A DNA stretch of 64,000 nucleotides from Sutcliffiella sp. FSL R7-0096 (GTDB taxonomy: Bacteria > Bacillota > Bacilli > Bacillales > Bacillaceae_I), in NCBI RefSeq assembly GCF_038595065.1, contig NZ_CP152003.1:3204001-3268000 (forward strand), written 5' to 3'. Position numbers and translations under genes: made by a program. Positions 3,588 to 38,650 of the stretch are shown in pieces (position 1 is the stretch's first letter; the number at the start of each line of letters is the position of its first letter). A model generated the notes under the pieces. The model ran no database searches and had not been told where the DNA came from. It saw only the letters and a program-made list of their open reading frames with translations.

Positions 3588-3715
3588 AGTTGATCTTCGT
3601 TGCAGGAGCTTCGCTTTCCGCGGGCAGTCCGGAAGCCTCCTCGGGCTACGCCCTGCGGGGTCTTCCATGTCCTTTCTTCCCGCAGGAGTCTTCGCTCCTT
3701 CCACTGCGATCAACT
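3588..3715 (-). repeat. Dispersed structured repeat, copy R1
   Basis: About 128 bp palindromic element between the pbpA stop and its terminator. On the minus strand it starts AGTTGATC and ends GATCAACT (outer stem), contains GACTCCTGCGGG, the core GAGGAGGCTTCC and CCCGCGGAAAGCGAAG. Inner stems include GGAGC/GCTCC, GGAAG/CTTCC and GGGC/GCCC. Five related copies (R2-R6) occur in this window. Open reading frames across this stretch (3581-3860, plus strand) are produced by the repeat and are not genes. Confidence 0.85.
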
Positions 3716-3754
3716 AGAGAATTTCATTATTTTAAGCTTTGTCTACACACTGAT

Positions 3755-3775
3755 AGCACTTCGTCATGGAGTGCT
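3755..3775 (-). other. Terminator-like hairpin without U-run, duplicate of 3515-3543
   Basis: AGCACT...AGTGCT hairpin 9 nt past the pbpA stop, nearly identical over about 22 nt to the true terminator on the other side of R1. On the minus strand it is followed by ATCAGTG rather than a U-run. It looks like a duplicated copy that lost, or never had, the U-run. Confidence 0.6.
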
Positions 3776-3784
3776 TTACAACTA

Positions 3785-5956
3785 TTATTCTGTGTCTTCT
3801 TCATTATCTTCTTGGTTTTCCTCTTCTTCTTTCTGCTCTTCAAGTGAAGGTTGTCCCTGAGCACGCTTCTGCTTCAAGTCGAAATAGGCTTCCATCACGG
3901 CATCTCCAATTTCAGTTGTAACTCCACCGGTTACACTGAAGTTTGTAGATGCTTTTGGAACAACGATCGCAAAAGCCATTTCCGGATTATCATAAGGTGC
4001 ATAGCCTACAAGATTGAAGTTTAGGGTTTCTATTTTTTCATATCTTGGATTTCCATCTTCATCTTGACCAATTACATTGAAGATTGGGGATTCGGCTGTT
4101 CCTGATTTACCGGCAGGCTTATATTTTTTTACTTTAGAACCTCTTGCAGTTCCGGCTGTACCATGATAAACACGAATGAATCCTTCCTGAACCCGTTTAA
4201 TCTGATCGTCTGTAACCTCTAAACGGTTTAATACTTCCGGCTTGAATCCCCTTGCAACGGCCCCAAGGCCTTCCTCTTGTGACGGTTCACGTATTTCCCT
4301 CACTAATTGAGGCTTCATACGGTAGCCACCATTAGCAATAGTGGATACATATTGCGCCAATTGAAGGGTTGTATAGTTATCATATTGACCAATGGATAAA
4401 TCGAGGTATTTACCTGGCAAGCTTCTATCTGTTCCGATTACACCAGTTGATTCCCTCGGTAGGTCTATGCCTGTCTCAACACCAAGGCCAAACTGTGCAA
4501 AGGATTTTCTGAACACATCATAAGCATTCGGATCAATGAACAACGGGTTATACGGTCTATAATTCGCTTTGGCAATATCCAATGCGATATTGAACATATA
4601 AACGTTGGAAGATCTTTCAAGGGCAGTGAGCTCATTGATCGTACCCATGTTCACGTAAGATGCTTTTCGAGTGAAATTATCTCTTGTCCCAATATACACA
4701 GGAGCATCATGATAGTATTTATTGTTATGCACTACTCCATGTTCCATCCCCGCCAGTACACTTGCTCCCTTGACGGTTGAACCAGGTTCATAAGCTTCCT
4801 GGAATGTTCCTAGTGCATTATCAAGCACCTCATACTTTCCATTTTCCAGAACGATTTGCTTTCCGGCAAGTGATAGAACCTCACCTGTTTTCGGATCCAT
4901 TACAACCACAAATGCTCTGTCAAGATACTTGGCTTCTGGTTTCGGCTTTGTTCTAAGCAAGGCATCTGTCAGAATTTCTTCGACCTTTTGCTGGAATTCC
5001 ATGTCAATGGATAAAATAAGGTCCTTTCCTCTTGAACCATCAAATACTTTTTCTTGATGAAGGAGGTTTCCAGCTGTATCTGTAACGTTACGGACACGGG
5101 CCTTTTGTCCCTGTAGTACATTTTCATATTGTGCTTCAATCTGACTTATCCCTATACGGTCATTCCGACTGTAGCCTCTTGCAAGAAATTCATCAATACG
5201 CTCACTTGGAATACCAGTTTCCGATGTCGATACTTTTCCAAAGATGGAGCGTAAGGTATTCTCATATACATAGTCGCGGACGAAATCGGTTGTGATATCT
5301 ACCCCAGGCAAATCACCAAGCATTTCACTGACCATCGCAAACTCTTTAGCTGTAACCTCTTGGTTTTTTACAATTTGTGGAGTAAGTGAGTACCCTTTGT
5401 TAAACTCTCGGAAGATGGCAAGTACCTCTTCTTCCTCCGCTGTGATTTCAGCTATTTGGCTATTCGTAATACGATCCAATTGAAGTTGATAAAGGTCACT
5501 CTCTTCCATCTCACCGTCGGCAACCTTTTTAAGGTCCTCATCTGTGATTAGTGCTGCGGCTTCATCAGGCCGGGTAAGGATCCAATAATCCTTCCTATCA
5601 CGTTCCTGGATTTTCTTCTTATCCATGGTAATGATTTCTGAAAGTTTCTTGGCTACTTCTAGTTGTTCCTTTGCCGTGGTTGATTGCATTCTTGTATATG
5701 TAATAGCATTCAGAGGGGTGTTATCCACCACGACGTTTTCATAGCGGTCAAAAATTTTACCTCTTGGGGCAAGCGTGTTAACCGTAACGTTCTCCGTCCG
5801 ATCCACTTCCTTGCGATAATCCTCACCAAATACAATCTGTACGAATCCCAGTCTTAAAATCAAGGCCGAGAAGAGTAAGAATACCGCAAAAAACAAAAGG
5901 TTCAAACGAGATGGGACATAATTCTTCTTTTTCTTTTTTTGCTTTTGATTGGTCAT
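3785..5956 (-). CDS. pbpA: Class B penicillin-binding protein, PBP2A-type transpeptidase
   Basis: Membrane-anchored D,D-transpeptidase that cross-links peptidoglycan, probably during cylindrical wall growth. The 723-residue product has one N-terminal membrane segment (about 15-35), a PBP dimer domain, and the transpeptidase domain with the three active-site motifs: STVK (serine near 393), SSN (near 448) and KSGTA (near 617). The C-terminus is a very acidic Glu/Asp tail rich in QEEE. The position next to pst and yqgE matches B. subtilis pbpA. No MrcA-type glycosyltransferase domain is present. The start ATG at 5956 is followed by a poly-lysine stretch before the membrane helix, as in the family. 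Confidence 0.94.
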   Translation of the reverse strand: MTNQKQKKKKKNYVPSRLNLLFFAVFLLFSALILRLGFVQIVFGEDYRKEVDRTENVTVNTLAPRGKIFDRYENVVVDNTPLNAITYTRMQSTTAKEQLEVAKKLSEIITMDKKKIQERDRKDYWILTRPDEAAALITDEDLKKVADGEMEESDLYQLQLDRITNSQIAEITAEEEEVLAIFREFNKGYSLTPQIVKNQEVTAKEFAMVSEMLGDLPGVDITTDFVRDYVYENTLRSIFGKVSTSETGIPSERIDEFLARGYSRNDRIGISQIEAQYENVLQGQKARVRNVTDTAGNLLHQEKVFDGSRGKDLILSIDMEFQQKVEEILTDALLRTKPKPEAKYLDRAFVVVMDPKTGEVLSLAGKQIVLENGKYEVLDNALGTFQEAYEPGSTVKGASVLAGMEHGVVHNNKYYHDAPVYIGTRDNFTRKASYVNMGTINELTALERSSNVYMFNIALDIAKANYRPYNPLFIDPNAYDVFRKSFAQFGLGVETGIDLPRESTGVIGTDRSLPGKYLDLSIGQYDNYTTLQLAQYVSTIANGGYRMKPQLVREIREPSQEEGLGAVARGFKPEVLNRLEVTDDQIKRVQEGFIRVYHGTAGTARGSKVKKYKPAGKSGTAESPIFNVIGQDEDGNPRYEKIETLNFNLVGYAPYDNPEMAFAIVVPKASTNFSVTGGVTTEIGDAVMEAYFDLKQKRAQGQPSLEEQKEEEENQEDNEEDTE

Positions 5957-6017
5957 TCCCTACACCTTTTCGTTTTATTTTTATGGCTATTAATAGCCCT
6001 TTGAATAAAAAATCAAG

Positions 6018-6047
6018 AGACACCTACATTTGCTTGGCTAGGTGTCT
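6018..6047 (-). terminator. Rho-independent terminator of yqgE
   Basis: Stem AGACACCTA/TAGGTGTCT with a 12-nt loop. On the minus strand it is followed by CTTGATTTTTTATT. It lies 56 nt past the yqgE stop and 61 nt upstream of pbpA, so the two genes are probably separate transcripts. Confidence 0.8.
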
Positions 6048-6102
6048 GTGTCTTCTTCTTATTGTATAGGAAATTGCCTAGAATTTCTATTAATAAATAT
6101 AA

Positions 6103-7386
6103 CTATGGTGTCGATTCTCCTTCTCCGTCTCGCAAAGTTGTCACAATTGGATGAGGCTCCTCTCTAGGGGGTGGTGCATCCAACTCCACTTTACGGACAA
6201 ATGGGTAAATAAGAGCATGTCCCGCTCCAATGATACATAAAAGTATAGGAATGCTCTTTTCTGTATCGAAAAATATCACGGCAATTAAGAATAGAATGAT
6301 GGAACCAGCACGACCTATGTTCAAGAAGACTTCCCTTACCACTATATACTCTATCCGCATTTCTGCTGCTTTCCATCCACGTCCAATTACATCATAGGTC
6401 AGTGACACATACGGGACAAGAAGTAGCGGATATGCGATGGCTATCGTCACAGCATACATCAGAAGCTTCACATAGGTCAGGTCAAAAATAAGAAAGAAAA
6501 TCGCTCCGTATAGGATCAGCCCTCCGACTAGAATGGACTTTTTTCTATACTCTTTTTTGATCATCCTTGTTGCCAGAAAGTAGCATACAAATGCAACAGC
6601 GGAATTTAGAAGCCCAAATGTACCAAGTGCCAGTTCACTATTGGTAGTAATGAACACTAAGACAGAAATCGCAAATAGAAATGTACCCTCCCTCAATCCT
6701 TGAAAGAAATGGGCGTTTGTTATGTATCGCCAATTGTCATTGTTCTTTCTTTCATGAAAGATACGACGAAGTTCATAACTCCCTTCCGCTCCACGTCTTT
6801 TCAAAAATAGGCTCAAGATGACGGCAGCAAAGAATAAAACGAGAGAAATGCTAAATATAACAGTGTAACCCGTAAATTTTTCTAAAGTAGAAATAATGTA
6901 TCCTGCTGCAAAGGGACCGATCATTCCGCCAACTGACGTTAATATACCTAGAAACCCATTGAAGAAGTCCCTTGTTTCCGGTTCTGTAATCTCAAAAGTC
7001 AATACATTGAATGCAAGCCAATAGAAACCATACCCTATCCCAAGTAATGCCCCAAGCATCAAAAGATAGGTGGAAGCCTTGTCTCCGATAAACAAAACAA
7101 ACAAATAAAAAAGTGCTAAGAATACGACACCTAAACGTAGCACAATGACTCGATCGATTTTTTTTGCCCACCTTCCTGCCAATATGAAGGTGAGTGGTTG
7201 GAAAACGACTATCGCTAAATTGTAGAAGCCAAGATCACTGAATTCACCTGATTGCTTCCAAAGATAGACGTTCACAAATGTATTGGATAAAGCGATGCTC
7301 AACGAATAGAGTCCACCTATGATCAGCAGTAGCATGAGGTCCTTGTTGACTTCCACATCACCAATTAATTTTTTTAAAGCTGCCAT
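6103..7386 (-). CDS. yqgE: MFS transporter, YqgE family
   Basis: Predicted multi-pass major facilitator protein of 427 residues with 12 hydrophobic segments. The first half holds the MFS-like loop AGRWAKKIDRVIVLR (about residues 76-90), the usual GRWxDRxGRR-type motif between helices 2 and 3. Substrate is unknown. The gene sits between sodA and pbpA exactly as yqgE does in B. subtilis, which is the main reason for the name. The C-terminus ends in a polar, proline-rich tail. It is bounded by a repeat upstream and its own terminator downstream, so it is probably monocistronic. Confidence 0.8.
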   Translation of the reverse strand: MAALKKLIGDVEVNKDLMLLLIIGGLYSLSIALSNTFVNVYLWKQSGEFSDLGFYNLAIVVFQPLTFILAGRWAKKIDRVIVLRLGVVFLALFYLFVLFIGDKASTYLLMLGALLGIGYGFYWLAFNVLTFEITEPETRDFFNGFLGILTSVGGMIGPFAAGYIISTLEKFTGYTVIFSISLVLFFAAVILSLFLKRRGAEGSYELRRIFHERKNNDNWRYITNAHFFQGLREGTFLFAISVLVFITTNSELALGTFGLLNSAVAFVCYFLATRMIKKEYRKKSILVGGLILYGAIFFLIFDLTYVKLLMYAVTIAIAYPLLLVPYVSLTYDVIGRGWKAAEMRIEYIVVREVFLNIGRAGSIILFLIAVIFFDTEKSIPILLCIIGAGHALIYPFVRKVELDAPPPREEPHPIVTTLRDGEGESTP

Positions 7387-7483
7387 CTTTACCCCGCTCC
7401 TTTATCTACGTTTATTGTGGCTTAAAGGAGTGGGAGTTATGTACTTTGATTTATGAACATCTGGGTAGGTTCTGTTTAACGTC

Positions 7484-7610
7484 GCTGATGCTTTCCGCAA
7501 AAGGCTTCGCTTTCCGCGGGACGATGCTTGAGCCTCCTCACTTCGTTGCGGGGTCTTAAGCAACCGTTACTCCCCCGCAGGAGTCTTCGCCTTTTGCTCC
7601 AAGCATCAGC
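7484..7610 (-). repeat. Dispersed structured repeat, copy R2
   Basis: 127 bp element between the sodA terminator and yqgE. On the minus strand the ends pair as GCTGATGCTT/AAGCATCAGC, the next stem is GCAAAAGGC/GCCTTTTGC, and the core GACTCCTGCGGG ... GAGGAGGCTCAA ... CCCGCGGAAAGCGAAG matches the other copies. It has the same orientation relative to the preceding gene (sodA) as every other copy. Confidence 0.87.
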
Positions 7611-7630
7611 TATAAATCACATTTAAAATA

Positions 7631-7662
7631 AAAACTCCCATCTTCTTAAAGATGAGAGTTTT
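7631..7662 (-). terminator. Rho-independent terminator of sodA
   Basis: Stem AAAACTCCCATCTT/AAGATGAGAGTTTT, 8 nt past the sodA stop, with a U-rich tail on the minus strand. The A-run on the other side means it could also act in the opposite direction. Confidence 0.85.
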
Positions 7663-7669
7663 TGGTTTA

Positions 7670-8278
7670 TTATTTTGCTTCGTTGTAAAGTTTTCCTACT
7701 ACATCCCAGTTAATTACGTTGAAGAACGCGTTGATGTAGTCAGGGCGACGGTTTTGGTAGTTTAGGTAGTATGCATGCTCCCAAACGTCAAGACCTAGAA
7801 CCGGAGTCTTGCCTTCCATTAATGGAGAGTCTTGGTTTGGTGTGCTAGTGATTTCCAACTCACCGTTGTTTACTACTAACCAAGCCCAACCAGATCCGAA
7901 ACGAGTAGCCGCTGCTTTAGCGAATTCGTCTTTGAAGTTGTCAAAGCTACCGAACTTGCTTGTTAGAGCATCTGCTAATTCGCCATTTGGAGATGTAGCT
8001 CCACCTGGAGTAAGGATATTCCAGAATAAGCTGTGGTTAGCATGTCCGCCACCGTGGTTGCGTACAGGTGTTTTGATGTTTTCAGGAACAGCGTCCATGT
8101 TGGAGATTAACTCTTCCACACTTTTGCCTTGAAGATCTGTTTGACCTTCTAATGCAGCGTTAATACCAGTAACGTAAGTATTGTGATGCTTTGTGTGGTG
8201 GATGTTCATTGTTTCTTTGTCGATGTGAGGCTCCAATGCGTCGTATGCATAAGGTAATTGTGGTAGTTCGTATGCCAT
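7670..8278 (-). CDS. sodA: Superoxide dismutase (Mn/Fe type)
   Basis: Cytoplasmic enzyme that dismutates superoxide to O2 and H2O2. The 202-residue protein is full length and shows the metal ligands His27, His82, Asp164 and His168 (motif DVWEHAYY), as well as the N-terminal [10 protein letters not shown] helix. The glycine-rich HGGGHANH stretch before the second ligand fits the manganese class. The ATG at 8278 has an AGGAGGAGA site 7-8 nt upstream. It has its own promoter (8353-8381) and terminator, consistent with an independently expressed gene. Position next to yqgE and a yqgC homologue matches B. subtilis. Confidence 0.97.
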
Positions 8279-8352
8279 AATTATCTCCTCCTAATTTTTA
8301 TGTAGTTAAACTAAATCAAAAAAAGTGGAACCCTTTTTGATCCGTTAGTTTC

Positions 8353-8381
8353 AGATTACCAAAACTTGTACAATCTTTCAA
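8353..8381 (-). promoter_or_regulatory. Likely sigma-A promoter of sodA
   Basis: On the minus strand TTGAAA (8376-8381), 17-nt spacer, TAATCT (8353-8358). It lies about 75 nt upstream of the sodA start. The -35 is good; the -10 is weak. Confidence 0.5.
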
Positions 8382-8438
8382 TCAATCTGCTTTGCTCAGC
8401 TGGAATTATTTATCTATCCTCAAAAAGGTGGTCCCCAT

Positions 8439-9413
<975 letters not shown>

Positions 9414-9518
9414 TTATGTATCTATCATTGTTATTACACGAAAGCGCCAAATGCAAACACTTCTAGTATATCCTTATTAAACCATTCCATTAGCCGATCT
9501 ATCCACTGATAAGGTTGG

Positions 9519-9998
9519 TCATATGAAAATAAAGAAAATGATGATCATCACCGCTTGAATGATACCTTTTACAAGGGCACTGCTGAACAGGCCTACCACT
9601 GAACCAAAACCCGCTTTAATGGATGCTTTCATATCGTTCCTTTTAACAATTAGTTCCCCTAATATGGCACCAAGAAATGGACCAAGAATGATACCGGCAA
9701 CTGGAATGATAAAAGGTCCAACTAATAATCCAATCGTACTTCCCCAGATTGATGCATTACTGCCACCGAACTTTTTCACCCCTAAAAGATTGGCGAAATA
9801 ATCTGCCACGAATAACAATATTACAAAAAGAAAGGTGATGACCCAAAACAGAAATGTAAGTTCTTCAAAAGAAAACAATATGCCGTAAAGTAAAAAGCCC
9901 CCTACTAAAAAAAGCACACTCGGAATGATTGGATAGACGAGCCCTATAAATGAAATGACAAATAAAGCGATAATAATAATCCAATATACCACTTCCAT
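9519..9998 (-). CDS. yqgC: DUF456 membrane protein, YqgC-like
   Basis: Small integral membrane protein of 159 residues with roughly four to five hydrophobic stretches and the glycine-rich repeats GPFIIPVAGIILGPFLGAILGE and GFGSVVGLFSSALVKGIIQ that characterise DUF456. Function is unknown. The name rests on the family and on position near sodA, as in B. subtilis. The upstream neighbour (symporter) ends in its own terminator, so yqgC is probably transcribed from the intervening 20-nt region or from weak readthrough. Confidence 0.75.
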   Translation of the reverse strand: MEVVYWIIIIALFVISFIGLVYPIIPSVLFLVGGFLLYGILFSFEELTFLFWVITFLFVILLFVADYFANLLGVKKFGGSNASIWGSTIGLLVGPFIIPVAGIILGPFLGAILGELIVKRNDMKASIKAGFGSVVGLFSSALVKGIIQAVMIIIFFIFI

Positions 9999-10022
9999 GA
10001 GAAAACCTCCTTATTGTGAAAA

Positions 10023-10050
10023 GAACCAGACCCTAATATGAGTCTGGTTC
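10023..10050 (-). terminator. Rho-independent terminator of the phosphate symporter gene
   Basis: Stem GAACCAGAC/GTCTGGTTC followed on the minus strand by TTTTCAC. It lies 21 nt past the symporter stop. Confidence 0.75.
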
Positions 10051-10070
10051 CTAATATACGGTATTGGCTA

Positions 10071-11711: not shown

Positions 11712-11822
11712 TACATTCAACCCCTTATTCCGAAAAGACTTGATAAAATCGACAAAAATCAACAAAACCAAGTACAATTATTAACCTAAATGTATTCCAA
11801 TGTAAATAGAATTCCTGATAAA

Positions 11823-11860
11823 TTTACATTATCTTTACAAACCGTAACTTGAAATTTACA
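11823..11860 (+). promoter_or_regulatory. PhoP-box-like direct repeats in the divergent intergenic region
   Basis: On the plus strand TTTACA occurs at 11823-11828 and 11834-11839 (11-bp spacing, as in a PhoP box) and again at 11855-11860, 1 bp off the next-but-one register. An inverted TGTAAA is at 11801-11806. The region separates the phosphate symporter (minus) from the DUF1189 gene (plus). Two of the expected four hexamers are clean, so this is only a candidate PhoP site. Confidence 0.4.
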
Positions 11861-11950
11861 TTCGATGATATTTAGCAATTAATTATTGTTCACATACCCA
11901 AATTAAGGTAACATAAAATTGTTATATTACATTAAAAGGACTGATAGGAA

Positions 11951-12739: not shown

Positions 12740-12751
12740 ACCTTTTAAATG

Positions 12752-12791
12752 CACCGACTATTTGCTTTGCAAAAATTGTCGGTGTTTTTTT
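12752..12791 (+). terminator. Rho-independent terminator of the DUF1189 gene
   Basis: Stem CACCGAC/GTCGGTG with an A/T-rich loop and a following TTTTTTT run, 13 nt past the stop. Confidence 0.88.
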
Positions 12792-14497: not shown

Positions 14498-14546
14498 CTT
14501 TTCACATGACTTTGTTAAAGTTGGTTGTGGATATGACCTGTTTCTA

Positions 14547-14673
14547 GCTGTTGATTGTAGCAAAAGGCGTAGACTCCAGCGGGAGAGTAGCGACAATATT
14601 GAGGCCCCAAGTGTAGCGTGCGAGGAGGCTCAAGGTCGCCCCGCGGTAAGGAGCCTATTGCGGAAATCAGCAG
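14547..14673 (+). repeat. Dispersed structured repeat, copy R3
   Basis: 127 bp copy read on the plus strand downstream of ispG (plus). Elements visible: GCTGTTGATT at the 5' end, GCAAAAGGCGTAGACTCC, TTGAGGCCCC, GAGGAGGCTCAA, GGTCGCCCCGCGG and AATCAGCAG at the 3' end. Inner pairing GCGAC/GTCGC is kept. The 3' half is more diverged (CGCGGTAAGGAGCC where the others have CGCGGAAAGCGAAG), so this is the most degenerate copy. Confidence 0.78.
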
Positions 14674-14703
14674 CGGCGTTTATCAAAGCCTTTCACATAA
14701 TAA

Positions 14704-14729: not shown

Positions 14730-14740
14730 CCATGGTGGTG

Positions 14741-15339: not shown

Positions 15340-15921
15340 ATGAGAAAACGATTCGGAATTGACATTGACGGGACATTGACTTGCCCCACTACATTTGTAC
15401 CTTTTATTAATAAAACATTGGATAAAAACATAACCTTGGATGACATGACACAATATGACCTTACCCCTTTAATGGGCTTGGATGAAGAAGGGTTCTGGAA
15501 GTGGATGGACGAAATGGAACCCCTCATCTACAAGGACGCCCCACTTGCTAAAGGTGCAAAGGGTGTAGTGCAAAAATGGAAAAGTCAATTTGATCTATTT
15601 TTCATCAGCGCCCGTAGAAATCACCTATATGAAGTAACGAACAATTGGTTTGCCAAACAAGAAATTGATTATGATCATCTTGAGTTAATTGGTAGCCATA
15701 ATAAAATTGCCGCCGTCAAAAAACATGATATCGAACTCTTTTTTGAAGACAAACATGATAATGCGTGTGATATCAGCGAGGAGTGTGGGATTCCTGTCAT
15801 ATTATTTGACACCCCTTACAACCGCGAACCTGTTCCATCTAATGTATTCAGGGTTTCTAATTGGTCAGAGGCCGATCGTAAAGTTCAAGCGATTCTTGAA
15901 CAGATGAGTGTGACACGATAA
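15340..15921 (+). CDS. yqfW: Putative 5'(3')-deoxyribonucleotidase, NT5C/HAD type (YqfW)
   Basis: HAD-superfamily hydrolase of 193 residues. The catalytic motif I is MRKRFGIDIDGTLTCP at the very N-terminus, followed by DLFFISARRN (motif II region) and ELFFEDKHDNACDISEE (motif III/IV region), the pattern of the NT5C nucleotidase group. Likely dephosphorylates a nucleoside monophosphate or similar small substrate; the true substrate is unknown. The ATG at 15340 has GGAGG 6-7 nt upstream; the ORF can be read back to 15247 but that would bury the ribosome binding site. Position matches B. subtilis yqfW. Confidence 0.8.
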   Translation: MRKRFGIDIDGTLTCPTTFVPFINKTLDKNITLDDMTQYDLTPLMGLDEEGFWKWMDEMEPLIYKDAPLAKGAKGVVQKWKSQFDLFFISARRNHLYEVTNNWFAKQEIDYDHLELIGSHNKIAAVKKHDIELFFEDKHDNACDISEECGIPVILFDTPYNREPVPSNVFRVSNWSEADRKVQAILEQMSVTR

Positions 15922-15936
15922 TTAAGGAGTATTCAG

Positions 15937-16053
15937 GTTGGTTGAAGTGCGCAGACTCCAGCGGGAGGAAGGGACATGGGAGACCCCGCAGGCTTGCCGA
16001 GGAGGCTCCCAGACCGCCCGCAGGAAAGCGAAGCACCTGTAATGAAAGCAACC
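15937..16053 (+). repeat. Dispersed structured repeat, copy R4
   Basis: 117 bp copy read on the plus strand directly downstream of yqfW (plus). Outer stem GGTTG/CAACC, second stem GTGC/GCAC, then GACTCCAGCGGGAGG, GGGAGACCCCGCAGGC, GCCGAGGAGGCTCCC and CCGCCCGCAGGAAAGCGAAG. The inner stem is GGGAG/CTCCC where other copies have TTGAG/CTCAA, so pairing is conserved while sequence is not. Confidence 0.83.
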
Positions 16054-16076
16054 GTTCCATGCAACAACTCAAAAAA

Positions 16077-27766: not shown

Positions 27767-27854
27767 ATTTCTTGACTATATTGTACCTCAAAAAGTGACA
27801 AGTGATGTGTTTTTAGTAATTTTTTTGTTAATAATGAATCTCTATATAAACACC

Positions 27855-27983
27855 GCTGTTGATTTCCGCAAAAGGCTTCGCTTTCCGCGGGGCGACCTTG
27901 AGCCTCCTCGGCTTCGTCTGTGGGGTCTCAAGATTGTCTCTACTCCCCCGCTGGAGTCTACGTCTTTTGCTCCAATCAACAGC
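27855..27983 (-). repeat. Dispersed structured repeat, copy R5
   Basis: 129 bp copy between the acyl-CoA dehydrogenase stop and its terminator. On the minus strand: ends GCTGTTGATT/AAATCAACAGC, second stem GCAAAAG/CTTTTGC, GACTCCAGCGGGGGAG, GACAATCTTGAG, GCCGAGGAGGCTCAAGGTCG and CCCCGCGGAAAGCGAAG. Same orientation relative to the upstream gene as the other copies. Confidence 0.87.
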
Positions 27984-28018
27984 TAGGAATCCTAAAAATC
28001 ATTGGCTAATTCCAATTA

Positions 28019-29829: not shown

Positions 29830-29893
29830 GGATTAACACTCCAGTAATAAGTCCAGTTTTAGATAACTGAATATTATAAAAGTAAAGAATTGC

Positions 29894-29940
29894 AAAAAAA
29901 GAGAAATAGCTTACTCTTTTAAGAAAAGCAAACTATTTCC
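29894..29940 (-). terminator. Rho-independent terminator of the dnaG-sigA operon
   Basis: Stem GAAATAG.../...CTATTTC with internal loop, followed on the minus strand by CTCTTTTTTTGC. It lies 11 nt past the sigA stop. Confidence 0.78.
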
Positions 29941-29950
29941 GTATGAGGTT

Positions 29951-31078: not shown

Positions 31079-31120
31079 CTGTCCCCTCCTTCCAACATTG
31101 AACGCGATAAAGAGGTATAT

Positions 31121-32935
31121 TTATTGTTTTAACTCTTTTTTCATTTGGATAATTTCCATCGCGATTTGTGCAGCACCCAGAAAGTCACTTTGTGCTTCTG
31201 CCTGTTTCTTTTCTTGCTCTTTTTCTTTTATTGTTAACAATTTTGGATAATTAAACACCTGTTTCATATAATCATGTAAAACCGCATCACTTAATTCTTC
31301 CTCAAGCGTAAGCATTCCGAGTTCGGAAATGATTTTCTTGAGCTCCTGTTCCGGGATGCGCTCCATGAAAATGCTGATGTTCGGTTCATAGCCTTCTTCG
31401 TAAAAGGCATATAAATAAGTGGCTATAGCCCGATGCTCCTCTATAATGAAGGAACCTTCAATCGCCGCTTGCACTTTTTCCGAAACATTCCTATCCTTCA
31501 GCATATGTGCCAGCAAATAGCGTTCTGCATTTAAATAAGCCGGCTTTAACGCTTGTGTGAAGATTTTAGGCTTATTAGGTATATTTATTCTATTCTGCTC
31601 GTTATAATCCTTTTTTTGAATCAAAGATTTATACACTTGGAACTGCTGCTGCTTTAAAGCCTCCAAGGAGATGGAAAATTCATCAGATAATTGACGAAGA
31701 TAATGATCCCGCTCCACCGCTTTGGTCAGCATGCTAATCTCCTTCAGAACATCTTCCACATACCGCATCCGTTCGCCTTCATCGTTCATGTTTCTTCCTC
31801 TGCGTAAATACCTGAGCTTGAATGCCATGAACGTTAAACTTGCCCCTATTACATCCTTTTGGAATGCGTCTGATCCTTTAGTGCGGATATAGTCATCAGG
31901 GTCCATTTTATCTGGCATCATGGCAATCCTTACATAGCAACCTTGCTGTATCAGTATATTGGCTGCCCTGTAAGCAGCTTCAATACCAGCATTATCTCCA
32001 TCGTAGCAGATGATGACACTTTCCACATGTCTACGGATGATACGGGCCTGTTCCTCTGTCAAGGACGTCCCCATTGTAGCTATTGCATTTGGAAACCCCG
32101 CTCCATCAGCCGCTATGACGTCAGCAAAGCCTTCAAAGAGGATGACCTGTTCTTGCTTTCTGATATGAGGGCGCGCATGATGGAAATTGTAGAGAATTTT
32201 ACTTTTATTGAAAAGGGGAGTCTCAGGTGAGTTCAAGTATTTCGGTTCTCCCTCTCCAAGTACCCTTCCCGAAAAAGCAATAACATTTCCTTTATGATCA
32301 TGGATAGGAAACATAATTCTATTTCTGAAGCGGTCGAAGTATTCTGCCGTATGTTCCTTCTCGATCAGCAGACCCGCTTTCTCGAGAAGCTGTTGGTTAT
32401 AGCCTCTTTTGGTCAGGAATTTCAAAGCAAAATCCCAACTGTTAAGAGCATAGCCTACTCCGAATTTCTTCAAGGTTTCATCGCTAAAGCCCCTGCCAGT
32501 CACATAATCATACGCTTCTTGACCCTCTTTTGTATTTAAAAGCAAATGATGGTAAAATTTATGCAAAAGCAAGTGTGCATCCATCATCCATTTTGTTTCC
32601 TTAGACTGTCCGGATTGCTCACGTTGTGATACTTCCGGTACTTCCACATCTACATTGGATGACTTGGCGAGCTTCTGTGCTGCCTCAACAAAACTTACCC
32701 CATCTATCTCCATGATAAAATTAAAAGCATTCCCACCAGCTCCACAGCCGAAACAGTGGTAGATTTGTTTGTCTGGCGAAACAGAAAAAGATGGAGTACT
32801 TTCCCCATGGAATGGACATAGTCCAAAATAGTTGCGACCTTGCTTTTTCAGTTGCACGTATTCACTTATTACATCAACAATGTCGGTAGACTGCCTAATC
32901 TGATCAATTGTTTGTTCAGGAATTCGATAATTCAT
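31121..32935 (-). CDS. dnaG: DNA primase DnaG
   Basis: Synthesises RNA primers for replication. 604 residues: N-terminal CHC2 zinc finger (CPFHGESTPSFSVSPDKQIYHCFGCGAGG, about 40-68), TOPRIM domain with EGFADVIAAD and the acidic CYDGDNAGIEAA motif, and a C-terminal helicase-binding domain (about 450-604). Located between yqxD and sigA as in B. subtilis. Confidence 0.97.
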   Translation of the reverse strand: MNYRIPEQTIDQIRQSTDIVDVISEYVQLKKQGRNYFGLCPFHGESTPSFSVSPDKQIYHCFGCGAGGNAFNFIMEIDGVSFVEAAQKLAKSSNVDVEVPEVSQREQSGQSKETKWMMDAHLLLHKFYHHLLLNTKEGQEAYDYVTGRGFSDETLKKFGVGYALNSWDFALKFLTKRGYNQQLLEKAGLLIEKEHTAEYFDRFRNRIMFPIHDHKGNVIAFSGRVLGEGEPKYLNSPETPLFNKSKILYNFHHARPHIRKQEQVILFEGFADVIAADGAGFPNAIATMGTSLTEEQARIIRRHVESVIICYDGDNAGIEAAYRAANILIQQGCYVRIAMMPDKMDPDDYIRTKGSDAFQKDVIGASLTFMAFKLRYLRRGRNMNDEGERMRYVEDVLKEISMLTKAVERDHYLRQLSDEFSISLEALKQQQFQVYKSLIQKKDYNEQNRINIPNKPKIFTQALKPAYLNAERYLLAHMLKDRNVSEKVQAAIEGSFIIEEHRAIATYLYAFYEEGYEPNISIFMERIPEQELKKIISELGMLTLEEELSDAVLHDYMKQVFNYPKLLTIKEKEQEKKQAEAQSDFLGAAQIAMEIIQMKKELKQ

Positions 32936-32966
32936 AACAACACTCCGTGATTAACTATTTCTATCT

Positions 32967-33437
32967 CTATTCGAGAATTCCTGCAATTTTCGACAAAGTT
33001 TTTTTAAGTGAGTGGACAAATCTTTCTCGGTCATTCGCCGAAAAAGCTTTGGGTCCCTTTGAATAGTTACCTTTCCGGCGTTCTTTCGCGGACAAAAATC
33101 TCATATGAAGGCTCAGTTCCATTTCACTCTCTTCATATTGTTTTCCACGAGGAGTGAGCACGTAAACGTTTCGAGACACCAACATACTTGCTAGACCAAT
33201 ATCTTGCGTGACTACTACATCATTCTTCTTCGCATGATTTAAAATATATAGATCTGCAGATTCCTTTTCATCATCCACATAGATCCAGGTACCTTCTGTT
33301 TTATTGGTCATGACATGGGAATAAGAAGCAACATAGCAGACATCTATTTCATATGTATGACTTATCCTGCTTATTTCTTCTTTTACAGGACAAGCATCCG
33401 CGTCCACCAAAATAATAGGTTTTCGATTATTTTGCAT
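32967..33437 (-). CDS. yqxD: UPF0178 (YaiI/YqxD) family protein
   Basis: Protein of 156 residues of the DUF188 family, with the motifs ILVDADACPVKEEI near the N-terminus and VVTQDIGLASMLV in the middle, predicted to form a PIN-like fold; catalytic acidic residues are present. Function not established. It is first in the yqxD-dnaG-sigA cluster. The 31-nt gap to dnaG and absence of a terminator suggest co-transcription. Confidence 0.88.
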   Translation of the reverse strand: MQNNRKPIILVDADACPVKEEISRISHTYEIDVCYVASYSHVMTNKTEGTWIYVDDEKESADLYILNHAKKNDVVVTQDIGLASMLVSRNVYVLTPRGKQYEESEMELSLHMRFLSAKERRKGNYSKGPKAFSANDRERFVHSLKKTLSKIAGILE

Positions 33438-33670
33438 GTTAAATGGTTTCTACATCCCTTCCCAAAAACCTTCTTTTTTCGCTATGTTTTTTTCAGTTGT
33501 CGAACGAAACTATAAAATTGCCCTTGACTTATAGCTAGTTTTAGTTTATTCGATAATCCTTCACTCTAAACCTTATCAAGTAATTTTTATCACAATTTTT
33601 TATTATAGTATAAAGTTTATGAATTGACTACTGTTTCGCACTGATAAATCAATGGATATTTAGTCCATGA

Positions 33671-33693
33671 AAAAGAGCACTTATAAAAGCGCT
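33671..33693 (-). terminator. Rho-independent terminator of ppsR
   Basis: Stem GAGCGC/GTGCTC with TTTTATAA loop and a TTTTT tail on the minus strand. 4 nt past the ppsR stop. Confidence 0.7.
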
Positions 33694-33696
33694 CCG

Positions 33697-34506
33697 TTAT
33701 TTCAATCGTTTGTTATATATGTTGGCTATCATGTTGGCGGTCTCTTCTACGGCTTTGTTGGTAACGTCGATAACCTCACAACCTATTTTATTTACAACAG
33801 ATTCGAAAAATGACAATTCTTCTTTAATTCTTTCGAGGTTGGCGTAAGCTGCTTTATCATTAAGTCCCAACGCTTTCAATCTTTCTTTACGGATATCATT
33901 CAATTTCTCCGGGCTGATTTTTAGGCCAAAGCATTTTTCCGGATTCACTTTAAATAATTCTTCCGGTGGATCCACTTCCGGCACAATCGGCACGTTCGCC
34001 ACTTTAAGGCGCTTGTGGGCAAGGTATTGTGATAGAGGTGTTTTGGATGTTCTGGATACCCCTACAAGTACGATATCGGCTTTGATGATTCCCCTTGGAT
34101 CTCTTCCATCATCATACTTTACAGCAAATTCGACTGCTTCTATTTTTTTGAAATAATCATCATCCAATTGACGTACGAGGCCAGGTTGGTATTTCGGTTT
34201 AACACCGTATTCCTGTTCCATCAAATCAACCAACGGTCCAATGATATCATACACTGGAACTCCCTCTTTTTTGGAAAGTGATACGAGGTGCTTTCTCATT
34301 TCTGGAACAACAAGGGTAAATGCAATCAACGCATGGTTGAGTTTTGCAATGGAGACCACTTCCGTCAAGGTAGCGATATCCTCTACATAAGGTATTCTTT
34401 TTAGGTGAAAGTTTGCACCATTAAATTGGCTTATTGCCGCTTTGACTGCCAACTCTGCTGTTTCCCCAACAGAATCCGATACAATATATACGGTACGCTT
34501 TTCCAT
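33697..34506 (-). CDS. yqfL: Pyruvate, phosphate dikinase / PEP synthase regulatory protein (PpsR family, YqfL)
   Basis: Bifunctional serine/threonine kinase and phosphorylase of the DUF299 family, which inactivates and reactivates PPDK or PEP synthase. 269 residues: [28 protein letters not shown] at the N-terminus and the P-loop-like [20 protein letters not shown] (about 150-168). In B. subtilis it follows ccpN (same order here, 14-nt gap) and is linked to control of gluconeogenesis. The target kinase is not in the window. Confidence 0.9.
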
Positions 34507-34520
34507 GATTCTCCTCCAAT

Positions 34521-35150
34521 CTAGATAATTTCATCGTGTGCCAGGGCAACCAGCACTTTCGTGATGTTTGTTTTTGTGATTCTACCGATCACTTCATAGC
34601 CTTTGTCTGTTTTCTTTACGACCGGAAGAGCATCTATTTGTTTTTCAATCAGTTTTTGCGCTACATCAATAATAAGATCTTCCTTAAAGCAAAACGTAAC
34701 ATTAGGCATTCTCGTCATAATAATATTAACCGGGATAGAAGTAAGCTCCTGCTTCCCGATGCTAGCTCGCAACAGGTCCTTACGGGAAAGCACTCCCACA
34801 ATGATGGAGAAGTTGTCCACTACGAAAAGTGTCCCTACGTCCTCTAAAAACATCGTACAGATTGCATCATAAACGGAAACACTTTCATGCACTACGACTG
34901 GTATGGACTGGTGGTCATTCACCTGTATTTTGTTTATCTTATCAGACAAAAGCTGTGAGCCCGTTTTGCCAGTATAAAAATAGCCGACACGGGGCCTTGC
35001 GTCAAGATAACCCGCCATAGTCAATATCGCAAGGTCCGGACGTAGAGTTGCCCTTGTCAGGTTCAGTTGATCTGCTATTGCTTCACCTGTAATCGGTCCC
35101 TGATCTTTTACAATTTGTAAAATGGTTTCTTGCCGTTTATTCAGTTCGAT
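34521..35150 (-). CDS. ccpN: Catabolite control repressor of gluconeogenesis CcpN, with unusual start
   Basis: Transcriptional repressor of gapB and pckA in B. subtilis. Winged-helix domain (about residues 1-60: [37 protein letters not shown]) followed by two CBS domains that bind nucleotides. The reading frame is intact through the whole helix-turn-helix, but between the in-frame TGA (35159-35157) and TTG 35024 there is no ATG, GTG or TTG. AGGTGGTGA (minus strand) lies 7-9 nt before an ATC codon at 35150, which I use as the provisional start (209 residues). Starting at the TTG 35024 would delete the DNA-binding domain. A GTG just upstream (GTGA-ACGACAATC) is one base out of frame; removing one A would give a normal start. 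See findings. Confidence 0.8.
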
Positions 35151-35159
35151 TGTCGTTCA

Positions 35160-35366
35160 CCACCTATTCGGTTATGGAGCGGTCGAGGTGCCCTCCGCTT
35201 TTCTATTTGTCCAGCTCCGGACACCCAGCGTCTATCAAACTTCCCTCGCCTCCTTACGATAAGCTCAACATCGAATCGCTATCGCCCTTCGTGTTTCCTT
35301 TATCTCATACGACTCAGTCCAGTTTGTACGCCGCTGAACGGTTGCCCTCCGCTTCTCTATTTGTGA
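35160..35366. repeat. Second dispersed-type repeat element between glyS and ccpN
   Basis: About 200 bp, reading neither frame as a gene. It carries GCCCTCCGCTT(T/C)TCTATTTGT twice, at 35190-35210 and 35344-35364, and CCAGCTCCGGACACCCAGCG. It resembles the kind of element common in Bacillaceae genomes that contains CTCCGCTTTTCTATTTGTC and TCCGGACAC. It ends about 10 bp from the ccpN ribosome binding site. Confidence 0.55.
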
Positions 35367-35421
35367 CATACTGTATATGTAATTGATATATACTAATTAT
35401 ACTGATAAACAGAAGAATTGG

Positions 35422-35470
35422 AAAGAGGCTGACTAAATATTGTGAGGTAATGCCTTTAGTCAGCCTCTTT
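35422..35470. terminator. Bidirectional terminator downstream of glyS
   Basis: Long stem AAAGAGGCTGACTAAA/TTTAGTCAGCCTCTTT, followed on both sides by short U-runs. It ends the glyQS transcript 48 nt past the glyS stop. Confidence 0.88.
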
Positions 35471-35518
35471 TGCATGTTTAACCATTTTATCATAGGGTTA
35501 TGGCTTTGTCTTTTTTAA

Positions 35519-37600
35519 TTACTTGACGATGATCCCATTCACATTTCCGAAAATGGAAATGACTTTAGAAAGGTTATCCATTAATGCTAAACGGTTCGTT
35601 TTGATTGCTTCATCATCTGTCATTACCATGATGTTATCAAAGAATGCATCAATGGCAGGCTTCAAGGAAGCAAGTTCATCATAAGCGGATACGAAATCTT
35701 GGGCTTCCGCTGCCTCCAGGACACGTGCTTTTTTGTCATTGTATTGTTTATAAAGCTCTTGTTCTTCCGCTTGCTTTAGCAGTTCTTCCTGTACATCAAC
35801 AGAAGCTGTTGCTTTTTTAGCAATGTTACAAACACGGCTCAATGATTCCATTGTTTCTTTAAAGTTCGTTTCATTTTTCTTCGCTTCCAACGTTTCTGCT
35901 TTTTTCACTGTGGAGCAGATATTTTCCAATGGAAGCTCAAGCGTTGCGTCTACGATATCGTATCGTACACCGCGCTCAGACAGATTGTTTTTAAGACGCA
36001 ATTTGAAGAATGCCAATAGTTCATCAAGAATCGCTGTTGTATCCTTCTTTGCTATCCCTTTCTCCACATAACGTTCAACAACTGATAGAATGAATTTCTC
36101 TACCGATATGGTCCACTGTTTGTTAAGGATGGTCTGCAAAATTCCTGCAGCCTGACGTCTTAACGCATAAGGATCCTGAGAACCAGTAGGGATTACACCG
36201 ATTGCAAAGAAACCGACAATGGTATCCATCTTCTCTGCGATGCTTAAGATTGCTCCAACATCAGAAGATGGTGTCTGATCTTCAGCAGATCGTGGCATAT
36301 AATGCTCATTGATTGCCTTAGCAACTATCGGACTTTCCCCTTTTGCCACTGCATATTTTTCTCCCATGATTCCTTGTAGTTCCGGGAATTCATAGACCAT
36401 ATGGGAAACAAGGTCAAATTTATAGATAGATGCAGCACGCTCGACATGGTTCTTTGTTTCATATTCGACATTTAAGAGTTCTGCCAGATCTGAAGCAATG
36501 GTTTGGACACGCCTAACTTTCTCACCGGTAGTTCCAATTTCCTCATGGAAGACGATTTTATCCAACTTTTTAACAGCTTCTTCTATGACCAGCTTTTCAT
36601 CTTCTTTGGAGAAGAAGGCTGCGTCTGACAATCTCGCACGCAATACTTTTTCATTCCCTCTCGCAACAATATCTAGGTTCTCATGATTTCCGTTGCGGAC
36701 CGTCACGAAATAAGGAAGCAGGGTTCCCTCCTCGCTTTTTACTGGAAAATAGCGCTGATGCTCTTTCATGGACGTGATCAATACTTCTTCAGGCAAGGAG
36801 AGATATTCTGATTCGAACGTACCAAACAATGCAGTTGGATATTCCACAAGATTATTTACTTCTTCAAGAAGATCTTCATCTACAGGGATGTCCCAGCCAT
36901 TTTCTTCTCCAATGATAGAAAGCTGTTTCCTGATAGCTTCTTTTCTTTCCGTAGCATCGACGATTACATAGTTGGAAAGCATCTCTTCTACGTAACTTCC
37001 TGCATCCTTCAGTTCAACCTGACCTCCAAGGAAACGATGCCCGGAAGAAACGCGGTCTGACTTTACCTTTGCAATCTCAAATCGGATGATATCTTCTCCA
37101 AATAGGGCAATCAGCCATTTAATTGGACGCACATACCTTAAGTCCTCATCAGCCCAGCGCATGTTTTTAGGAAAGTGCAGGCTTGTTGCAACAGAAGCAA
37201 TAGAGCTAAGAATCTCTTTCGTTTCTTTTCCTTCCACATGTTTTTGAACATGTACGTATTCAACGCCGTTAATCTCTTTGAAATAGATATCTTCCACAGT
37301 TAGTCCTTGACCTCTTGTAAAGCCTTGGGCTGCCTTTGACCACTCTCCGTCTGCTGTAAGAGCGACCTTTTTGGCAGGACCTTTCGCTTCTAACGTAACA
37401 TCTTCTTGTTTTTCCACAAGTCCTTCTACCACCACTGCAAGTCTTCTTGGAGTAGAATACGCATGGATGTTTTCATAGGTAAGTTGATTTGTCTCCAACC
37501 AAGATTTCACTTTTTCCTGAAGCTGATTCATGGAATCTGTCACAAACCGCGCCGGCATCTCTTCTAATCCTATTTCAAATAAAAAGTCTCTCTTATTCAT
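35519..37600 (-). CDS. glyS: Glycyl-tRNA synthetase beta subunit
   Basis: Large subunit of the bacterial-type (alpha2beta2) glycyl-tRNA synthetase, needed for tRNA recognition. 693 residues; opens [31 protein letters not shown], contains [16 protein letters not shown] and [17 protein letters not shown], and ends in an anticodon-binding domain with [12 protein letters not shown]. Overlaps glyQ by 8 nt and ends in a strong terminator. Complete. Confidence 0.97.
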
Positions 37601-38480
37601 GGTCGCTCTCCTCCTTTTTCAAAATTGGGAAACCGAGCTTTTCTCTTTCCTCATAGAATGTTCTTGCCACTTTCCGAGCCAGGTTTCTGACGCGGCCGAT
37701 ATAGCCCGTTCGTTCTGTAACAGAAATGGCACCCCGTGCATCTAGTTGGTTAAAGGTGTGAGAGCACTTAAGCACATAATCATATGCAGGGTGCACAAGG
37801 CCGTGGTCCATCTGACGGTGTGCTTCTTTCTCATAAATGTCAAATAAAGAGAAGAGCATGTCAGGATCAGATGTTTCAAAGGTATATTTAGAATGTTCAT
37901 ATTCTGGTTGCAGGAAAATATCGCGAACCGTGAACCCTTCTGTCCATTCCAGGTCAAATACATTTTCTTTGTCCTGAATATAGGAAGCAAGACGCTCAAT
38001 CCCGTAAGTGATTTCTACAGATACCGGTTTACATTCGATTCCGCCAACCTGTTGGAAGTAGGTGAATTGGGTGATTTCCATTCCATCTAGCCAAACCTCC
38101 CAGCCAAGTCCCGCCGCTCCAAGAGTCGGTGCTTCCCAGTTGTCTTCTACAAAACGGATATCGTGCTTGAGCGGATCGATTCCAAGTTTTTTCAAAGATT
38201 CTAGATAAAGCTCCTGAATATTATCTGGTGAAGGCTTCATGATGACTTGGAACTGATGATGTTGGTATAGACGGTTCGGGTTTTCACCGTAACGGCCATC
38301 GACAGGTCTTCTGGATGGTTCCACGTATGCTACATTCCACGGCTCGGGGCCGATGCTTCTTAGGAATGTATAGGGGCTCATGGTTCCGGCACCTTTTTCT
38401 ACGTCGTAGGCTTGCATGAGGATACAGCCTTGTTCTGACCAGTGGTTTTGCAGGGTCAGGATCATGTTTTGGATGTTCAT
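37593..38480 (-). CDS. glyQ: Glycyl-tRNA synthetase alpha subunit
   Basis: Catalytic class II core of glycyl-tRNA synthetase. 295 residues: [65 protein letters not shown], the family hallmark. First gene of glyQS. The gene is preceded by a long leader: T-box (38705-38942) and, after its terminator, repeat R6 (38523-38650). ATG at 38480 with GGAAGGTGT 4-8 nt upstream. Confidence 0.97.
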
Positions 38481-38522
38481 TGTGACACCTTCCTTTTTTT
38501 ATTGGGGTACTGCTTGTGACTC

Positions 38523-38650
38523 CTGTAGATTTCCGTTCCAGGTGTTCGCTTTCCGCGGGACGGTGCTTGAGCCTCCTCACTTCGTTGCGGGGTCTCAATC
38601 AACCGTTACTCCCCCGCAGGAGTCTCACACCTTGCACTCCAATCAACAGG
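38523..38650 (-). repeat. Dispersed structured repeat, copy R6, inside the glyQS leader
   Basis: 128 bp copy between the T-box terminator and glyQ. On the minus strand: CTGTTGATT/AATCTACAG ends, second stem CAAGGTGT/ACACCT, then GACTCCTGCGGGGGAG, ACGGTTGATTGAG, GTGAGGAGGCTCAAGCACCGT and CCCGCGGAAAGCGAA. All paired stems are kept with different bases from R2 (ACGGT/ACCGT here). When the T-box reads through, this element is part of the glyQ mRNA leader. Confidence 0.87.

What the first reader, a model, noticed from the sequence alone, without database searches (positions are those of the whole stretch)
3588..38650. Six copies of a ~120-130 bp structured element, always co-oriented with the preceding gene and with compensatory stem changes
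Seen directly: copies at 3588-3715, 7484-7610, 14547-14673, 15937-16053, 27855-27983 and 38523-38650. Each is downstream of a gene (pbpA, sodA, ispG, yqfW, acyl-CoA dehydrogenase, recO/T-box) and read in the direction of that gene it gives GACTCC-GCGGG ... GAGGAGGCT ... CCCGCGG-AAGCGAAG. 6 of 6 share this orientation even though two genes are on the plus strand and four on the minus. Base pairs are preserved while bases change: inner stem TTGAG/CTCAA, GGGAG/CTCCC, GGAAG/CTTCC; next stem ACGGT/ACCGT versus GCGAC/GTCGC; outer arms GCTGATGCTT/AAGCATCAGC versus AGTTGATC/GATCAACT. This points to selection on an RNA (or DNA hairpin) fold. Similar dispersed repeats are known in Bacillaceae, but I cannot name this one.
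Basis: partly seen in the sequence, partly recalled or inferred. Interest (0 to 1): 0.75.

Follow-up and report, generated by a model that had tools for sequence, protein, structure and literature searches.

The report
Structured core riding three transposon frames
The six repeats are copies of a folded DNA element, scattered in hundreds through this Bacillus-like genome and found in most sampled relatives, that travels inside at least three kinds of small parasitic transposon, one of which lands on the stop signals of genes and leaves the whole stop-signal hairpin duplicated.

Summary
In detail: six co-oriented structured copies are present, and the fold shows strong, tree-aware covariation. 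They belong to a dispersed family: 235 near-full copies in the 1.31 Mb I held of the 4.91-Mb genome (probably Sutcliffiella), with matches in 72 of 101 sampled genomes of the order. They are mobile-element DNA. One conserved core sits in three non-autonomous frames. T2 (~184 bp, 8-bp target duplications) matches IS1595-family insertion sequences of other genomes; T1 (~211 bp) and T3 (~213 bp) match two distant IS1182-family groups. T1 sits at terminator-like hairpins and is flanked by two whole copies of the hairpin (55 of 55; repeat length follows hairpin length), whereas IS1272, of the same family, is reported to delete or replace its hairpin. T3 insertion sequences in two related species carry the core and sit in the apical hairpin of other cores. 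Orientation is biased, not absolute (137 of 174 in tandem gaps). Between species some loci differ by whole hairpin blocks, so part of the 'compensation' is block replacement. G-T only slightly exceeds A-C in stems, so RNA-level selection is unproven. What the core does is inferred; 106 of 235 copies have no recognised frame. New variant of a known kind (MITEs).

The parts
3543..3752 (-). T1 element (IS1182-type MITE frame) that contains core copy 1
   Evidence: Terminal repeats at 3737-3752 and 3542-3557. No core at this place in 9 of 10 same-genus loci compared.
3588..3715 (-). core copy 1
3755..3777 (-). terminator hairpin, copy left without its T-tract (5' of T1)
   Evidence: Direct repeat of 3520-3542.
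3520..3542 (-). terminator hairpin, copy that keeps its T-tract (3' of T1)
   Evidence: A single such hairpin at the empty site in each of the four relatives looked at: G011, G006, G008, G015.
7472..7623 (-). core copy 2, with a T2-like 3' end
   Evidence: Present at the same place in 10 of 13 same-genus loci compared.
14508..14690 (+). T2 element (IS1595-type MITE frame) that contains core copy 3 (14536-14687)
   Evidence: Present in 3 of 13 same-genus loci compared, absent in 10.
14500..14507 (+). 8-bp target-site duplication TTTCACAT, left
14691..14698 (+). 8-bp target-site duplication TTTCACAT, right
15921..16066 (+). core copy 4, no recognised frame; not found at this place in relatives
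   Evidence: Absent in 13 of 13 same-genus loci compared.
27845..27997 (-). core copy 5, no recognised frame
   Evidence: Present in 7 of 7 same-genus loci compared.
38516..38660 (-). core copy 6, no recognised frame, between the T-box leader and glyQ
   Evidence: Present in 4 of 5 same-genus loci compared.
38753..38933 (-). T-box leader of glyQS (context)
   Evidence: RF00230, 92.4 bits, gathering score 93.

Best explanation
SHOWN: the repeats are copies of one structured core (about 125-135 nt, one long imperfect hairpin), and many of them lie in non-autonomous transposon frames. Three frames carry the core. T2 has IS1595-type ends and 8-bp AT-rich target duplications. T1 has IS1182-type ends and each insertion examined is flanked by two whole copies of a terminator-like hairpin. 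T3 has ends of a second IS1182 group; the autonomous form in two related species carries the core itself and sits in the apical hairpin of other core copies. 106 of 235 copies (45%) have no recognised frame; they may be decayed T2-like insertions (inferred). INFERRED MECHANISM for T1 and T3: the IS1182-family transposase recognises a folded hairpin and joins the element at opposite strands of its two feet, so the single-strand gap that is repaired equals the hairpin and the hairpin is duplicated. For T1 this leaves the upstream hairpin without its T-tract and rebuilds a complete terminator on the far side, so the core should lie in the sense 3' untranslated region while the gene keeps its terminator: a nearly harmless insertion. 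INFERRED for the core: its fold and its invariant blocks are kept because they help the carrier persist (a tolerated sense-strand 3' module and/or a hairpin landing site); copies exchange hairpin blocks, probably by gene conversion.
For: T1: 55 of 55 copies with both ends have flanking direct repeats (score 13 or more; 0.1% of crossed flanks reach it), with stable hairpins on both sides in 52 of 55. In 50 of 55 the repeat is a hairpin with at most 3 unpaired bases at either end, and repeat length follows hairpin span, rho 0.92. Empty site of the window's T1: one hairpin in 4 of 4 relatives looked at. Autonomous T1-type ISs of related genomes: 7 of 7 with both ends show the same duplication (four of the seven are one IS at four sites in one genome). 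T2: of 26 frames with both ends, 11 have an exact 8-bp repeat and 11 more match at 7 of 8; crossed flanks give 0.15% and 3.8% for 8 and for 7 or more. Of 10 frames of 181-186 bp around cores in loci, 6 have exact 8-bp repeats. IS1595-family ISs with the same ends and 8-bp repeats: 5 loci (two proteins confirmed). T3: 6 of 6 ISs of about 1.86 kb carry a core inside and have core halves on both sides (five are one IS in one genome; in L158 one half is a weak partial match). In the own genome, 6 of 9 rows with both T3 ends lie between core halves. Recent spread: 180 of 1485 pairs of T1 cores are at least 97% identical. Filled/empty loci and block differences. Fold. Terminator found after the core in 31 of 43 and before it in 3 of 43 co-oriented T1 copies.
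Against: No transposase of these families was found in the own genome: PF01610, PF13751, PF05598 and PF12762 gave 0, so current mobility there is not shown. None of the autonomous T1-type (7) or T2-type (5) ISs examined contains the core, so how it entered those frames is unknown. 106 of 235 copies have no recognised frame, and the frameless copy at 15921 shows no clean duplication. 3 of 9 rows with both T3 ends have no core halves beside them, and two T3-like ISs (L163, L172) hold no core and sit elsewhere. T1 orientation is only weakly biased: 26 co to 13 opposed, p = 0.05. For T2 and frameless copies a terminator was found before the core more often than after it (10 against 3 of 33; 18 against 11 of 75) and neither in most (21 of 33; 48 of 75); my terminator finder is insensitive or many genes are in operons (50 of 250 genes without element, same). 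So the '3' untranslated region' reading fits T1 best. G-T versus A-C gives little strand asymmetry. No transcript data were available.
Confidence: 0.8

Rival explanations
1. The core is primarily a cis-acting structured RNA (for example a 3'-end stabiliser or processing element) that benefits host genes; transposon frames are only how it got there.
For: Orientation with the preceding gene in 137 of 174 tandem gaps. Nearly invariant sequence blocks besides covarying helices. Three of the six window copies kept at orthologous places, same orientation, in most related species compared (10 of 13, 7 of 7, 4 of 5).
Against: G-T 167 against A-C 131 in stems, less than I would expect for a sense RNA (expectation from general knowledge, no RNA control was run). 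The other three window copies are patchy or private. T1 orientation may be set by the terminator target. No Rfam family at gathering scores in the window.
Confidence: 0.3
2. The core is kept as a DNA hairpin: a landing site and recombination substrate for hairpin-seeking IS1182 elements, with its arms kept complementary by intrastrand template switching or gene conversion rather than by RNA selection.
For: T3 ISs and MITEs lie in the core's apical hairpin. Whole hairpin blocks differ at orthologous loci. Double changes such as GC to TA and TA to AT, which cannot pass through G-U, are common. Little strand asymmetry.
Against: Does not by itself explain the orientation bias of frameless (68 to 15) and T2 copies (31 to 3), nor why an IS1595 frame would carry it.
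Confidence: 0.35
3. Chance hitch-hiking: a T2 MITE happened to contain the core, its hairpins attracted IS1182 elements, and these captured it without benefit to anyone; covariation reflects descent of a few master copies.
For: T2 frames were found outside Sutcliffiella and T1-type repeats were not (1 of 146 copies tested, itself Sutcliffiella). T3 inserts into cores, which offers a capture route. Near-identical young T1 copies.
Against: 73 double changes on the tree against at most 20 in permutations indicate continued maintenance. Matches in 50 of 66 genera sampled.
Confidence: 0.25
4. The cores are ordinary intrinsic terminators shared by common descent.
For: Position after genes.
Against: No T-tract directly follows the core in the copies printed; terminators lie outside it. 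Copies are dispersed with target duplications.
Confidence: 0.02

Closest known systems
IS1272 / TnSha1 (IS1182 family, staphylococci; PMC4923244: passages seen; PMC5678879: abstract and passages seen)
   Same: Same transposase family (the T1 and T3 partners tested exceed the NF033551 IS1182 cut-off); target is a hairpin, often a terminator, without shared primary sequence.
   Different: IS1272/TnSha1 insertion is reported to delete part of the hairpin or replace it, with no target duplication. Here the whole hairpin is duplicated, for autonomous T1 ISs and for the T1 MITE.
IS1595-family insertion sequences
   Same: T2 ends GGCTCTGTTAAAG and 8-bp AT-rich duplications match IS1595-family ISs in other genomes of the order.
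   Different: The five ISs with such ends examined do not contain the core; T2 has no transposase.
BOX / RUP / SPRITE of Streptococcus pneumoniae (passages of PMC10969869)
   Same: Short structured intergenic repeats that cluster and insert into one another.
   Different: Not compared by sequence here; no core shared by unrelated frames is described in the passages seen.
bcr1 of the Bacillus cereus group (table row and reference title in passages of PMC2267715)
   Same: About 150-bp intergenic repeat with a conserved fold in Bacillus.
   Different: The cited title calls it specific to the B. cereus group. No sequence comparison was made.
Bhal-1 / Bhal-2 of B. halodurans (passages of PMC2267715)
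   Same: Intergenic stem-loop families in a related organism.
   Different: 74-76 bp and 36-50 copies; sequences not in the passages seen, so identity was not tested.

Membership tests
MITE (non-autonomous transposon) | Short, terminal inverted repeats, no transposase | tested here: met
   T1, T2 and T3 are about 211, 184 and 213 bp with fixed ends. Met for framed copies only.
MITE (non-autonomous transposon) | Target-site duplication and empty sites | tested here: met
   T1 hairpin repeats in 55 of 55; T2 exact 8-bp repeats in 11 of 26, 7 of 8 in 11 more; presence/absence between species and a single hairpin at the empty T1 site.
MITE (non-autonomous transposon) | Autonomous partner with the same ends | tested here: met
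   IS1182 family for T1 and T3; IS1595 family for T2; all in related genomes, none found in the own genome.
MITE (non-autonomous transposon) | Frameless copies (106 of 235) also mobile | tested here: inconclusive
   One (15921-16066) is absent in 13 of 13 relatives, but no clean duplication was seen.
IS1182-family insertion mode as published for IS1272 | Hairpin target | tested here: met
IS1182-family insertion mode as published for IS1272 | Hairpin partly deleted or replaced, no duplication | tested here: not met
   Hairpin duplicated whole.
Known Rfam RNA family | Match at or above gathering score | tested here: not met
   0 matches in the window; 38400-39000 searched up to E = 1 gave the T-box and three sub-threshold matches, none over the core at 38516-38660.
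REP/BIME moved by RAYT (Y1) transposase | RAYT gene in the genome flanked by the repeat | not tested
   No search with the Y1 transposase family was made.
Intrinsic terminator | Hairpin followed directly by a T-tract | tested here: not met
   No T-tract directly after the core in the copies printed.

The most novel reading that the evidence does not exclude
The core is a portable functional module, an RNA or DNA hairpin that makes insertion at gene 3' ends tolerable or useful, which unrelated transposon families (IS1595 and two distant IS1182 groups) have each captured; and some IS1182 elements transpose by a hairpin-duplicating mode in which target-duplication length is set by the hairpin rather than by the transposase.
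Probability: 0.35. Interest if true: 0.8.

Novelty: new variant of a known kind. Interest (0 to 1): 0.62.

Why it matters
Target duplications are normally of near-fixed length set by the transposase (general knowledge). T1 gives a natural series of 55 insertions in which the length tracks the target hairpin, which makes the mechanism of hairpin-seeking IS1182 transposases directly testable and contrasts with the hairpin-replacing mode reported for IS1272. The rebuilt terminator would explain how so many insertions at gene ends are tolerated. A single structured core kept in frames of unrelated transposases, with matches in 72 of 101 sampled genomes of the order, is an abundant feature of Bacillus-like genomes for which the scan of the window against Rfam release 15 found no family, and it affects gene 3' ends, annotation and assembly.

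Tried and rejected
Rejected: ordinary terminators (no T-tract directly after the core). Known Rfam RNA. ISL3 as T2 partner (PF01610 gives 0 in the own genome; the IS1595 ends settled it). Phage carriage (the T2 copy at 14512-14700 gave no match in the phage collection). Consensus folding of all 141 sequences with RNAalifold gave no structure, so the fold of the consensus sequence was used. A long fixed pattern found 1 match only and was dropped. A first IS1595 search in the family gave ISs with other ends. Searching the element's letters in papers gave 5 papers on unrelated subjects. Text searches showed no paper on this repeat among the titles and abstracts listed; lists were cut at 12-20 papers (of 58; of 620; of 1,434), one search found none, and a B. 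infantis genome paper seen in passages (PMC5001198) did not mention it there. The library lacks most subscription journals, and ISfinder was not available, so absence from print is not established.

Limits: gene calls are my own simple ORF scoring and missed at least the ORF at 38974-39759; the 235 copies come from stretches chosen mostly around known copies, so they are not an unbiased sample; the genome search scored at most 150 or 32 candidates per genome, so counts per genome are lower bounds; of the 30 loci, only those with both ends were counted as T1- or T3-type (7 and 8); others had one end or none within the stretch; the tree test used parsimony on a FastTree tree and does not model block exchange.
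Full report
What was checked. The six copies are in the window at the stated places, in the orientation stated, and they fold as described. The 9-mer GAGGAGGCT occurs 285 times against 32 for the reversed control, so about 250 copies are likely. I took stretches of the genome, mostly around copies (1.31 Mb held with the window), and a profile found 295 matches there, 235 of them near-full.

The core is mobile-element DNA. Looking outward from the core shows fixed ends at fixed distances. T1 frames (55 with both ends) run from CAGTGTGTAGACAAAG to TTTGTCAACAGTCTGA. T2 frames (26 with both ends) run from GGCTCTGTTAAAG to TTTAACAGAGCC. T3 frames (9 with both ends) run from CCACTGATAAA to TTTTTCAGTGG. 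106 of 235 copies show none of these ends; the remaining 39 show one end or a mixture.

T1 is flanked by duplicated hairpins. In 55 of 55 T1 copies the two flanks carry a direct repeat (crossed flanks of different copies reach the same score in 0.1% of pairs), and in 52 of 55 both copies fold stably. The repeat is the hairpin itself, with at most 3 unpaired bases at either end, in 50 of 55; its length (16-34 bp in this measure) follows the hairpin span with rho 0.92; and in 52 of 55 it abuts the element's 5' end exactly. The downstream copy usually keeps the T-tract: 43 of 55 have at least five T in ten bases at its end. A terminator was found after the core in 31 of 43 co-oriented T1 copies, between stop codon and core in 3, and in neither place in 11. 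In the window the repeats are 3755-3777 and 3520-3542. The four relatives looked at (G011, G006, G008, G015) have one hairpin there and no element; a core is absent in 9 of 10 same-genus loci compared, the tenth (G005) holding other core pieces. T1 cores are often nearly identical: 180 of 1485 pairs at 97% or more.

Partners. A search for the domain PF05598 in the 18 genomes of the family gave none in the own genome and matches in 9. Of the 30 loci fetched, seven carry T1-type ends about 1.5 kb apart (four in G014, which is one IS at four sites, and one each in G010, G001 and G005). All seven are flanked by a repeated hairpin (repeat scores 17.5-30) and none has a core match. Six carry T3-type ends about 1.86 kb apart (one in G011, five in G008, apparently one IS at five sites). 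All six contain a complete core near one end and have core halves on both sides, one half in L158 being a weak partial match, so they sit in another core's apical hairpin. Two further T3-like ISs with both ends (L163, L172) have no core match; several other loci show a single end. In L157 and L158 the inner core lies upstream of the transposase gene and on the other strand. The four proteins tested are IS1182-family transposases (NF033551, above cut-off), and one T1 and one T3 protein compared are only 20% identical. In the own genome 23 rows carry a T3-type end: 7 have core halves on both sides (two of these rows are one place read on both strands), 10 on one side and 6 on none; of the 9 rows with exactly both T3 ends, 6 lie between halves and 3 do not.

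For T2, 26 own frames with both ends give 11 exact 8-bp repeats and 11 more at 7 of 8, against 0.15% and 3.8% (7 or more) for crossed flanks. IS1595-family ISs in other genomes of the order have the same kind of ends: of 34 loci examined, five (L339, L343, L346, L352, L358) show such ends with exact 8-bp repeats. Proteins of L352 and L358 were confirmed as IS1595; L339 and L343 have no open frame of 250 codons. No core lies inside these. T2-like frames of 181-186 bp enclose a core in 10 places among the loci, 6 of them with exact 8-bp repeats, including Mesobacillus. T1-type hairpin repeats were found in 1 of 146 copies in the same loci, and that one is Sutcliffiella.

Fold. On 141 copies non-redundant at 85% identity, the fold of the consensus (46 pairs) is kept in 82.8% of cells against 38-46% for slid partners. 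The number of pairs with any double change does not discriminate (32 observed, 33-38 slid), but the number of such cells does (419 against 136-198). On a tree, with 37 of these pairs, pair-to-pair double changes occur 73 times, against 1-10 for slid partners and a mean of 5 (maximum 20 of 500) for permuted partners. Of the 60 strongest covarying column pairs without tree correction, 13 are pairs of the fold, of 46 among 11,628 candidates; many others join positions that mark subtypes. Many double changes are of kinds that cannot pass through G-U, such as GC to TA. G-T exceeds A-C only 167 to 131 over the stems, and 35 to 20 in the 51 best-scoring copies. Other stretches, such as AGACTCC, GAGACCCC, GAGGAGGCT and GGAAAGCG, are nearly invariant, so sequence as well as shape is kept. 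GAGGAGGCT contains the ribosome-binding consensus AGGAGG (consensus recalled; meaning here unknown).

Between species. With flanking genes as anchors, the copy at 7472 is present in 10 of 13 same-genus loci, 27845 in 7 of 7, 38516 in 4 of 5, 14508 in 3 of 13, and 15921 in 0 of 13; where present, orientation is the same. At 7472, 27845 and 38516 whole hairpin blocks differ between species although flanks align, and at 7472 part of the T2-like 3' end is shared across block types. This looks like gene conversion between copies, or repeated insertion at one site; part of the 'compensatory' signal therefore moves as blocks.

Orientation. In tandem gene gaps 137 copies are co-oriented and 37 opposed; by class T2 31:3, frameless 68:15, T3 9:3, T1 26:13, mixed 3:3. 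Convergent gaps hold 46 copies and divergent gaps 12, although divergent gaps of at least 150 bp are more numerous in the held sequence (99 against 77); 3 copies could not be placed. So the elements avoid promoter regions and prefer gene ends. For T1 the terminator target can set orientation; for T2 and frameless copies the cause, targeting or selection, is open.

Spread. Model matches at E of 1e-6 or better occur in 72 of 101 genomes of the order and 50 of 66 genera. Similar DNA also occurs in 14 plasmid records, none covering 80% of the T1 query.

Reading. The framed copies are MITEs with a shared structured core; that part is well supported. The hairpin-duplicating insertion is supported by flanks, empty sites and autonomous partners, but the enzymology is inferred. 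The published IS1182 examples IS1272 and TnSha1 also seek hairpins but are reported to delete or replace them (PMC4923244 passages; PMC5678879 abstract and passages). What the core does for its carriers, or for the host, is not shown; the best guesses are a tolerated sense 3' module or a hairpin landing site.

Noticed in passing
window 38753-38933 (-): glyQS T-box leader scores 92.4 bits, just under Rfam's gathering score of 93, so default scanning misses it; a core copy lies between it and glyQ.
   Followed up: partly
L071 (G000:C1:3190497-3190973): Three head-to-tail core copies with similar spacers between them.
   Followed up: no
L149 and L150, locus 4001-4087: Core-like DNA lies between gnd and the next gene in a zwf-gnd cluster on plasmids of B. 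subtilis and Paenibacillus urinalis; in L150 a Tn3-family transposase gene is 3 kb away. It may therefore also spread as plasmid cargo.
   Followed up: partly
L151, locus 4002-4184: A core copy on a Priestia plasmid is annotated as a hypothetical protein; such calls are probably spurious.
   Followed up: no
window, all six core copies: The GAGGAGGCT block holds a ribosome-binding consensus that is mostly paired in the predicted fold.
   Followed up: no
L183 and L184 (G004): IS1595-family elements with other ends (GCCTGTTTTCTAAAATATTGTGG) and 8-bp repeats, without a core.
   Followed up: no
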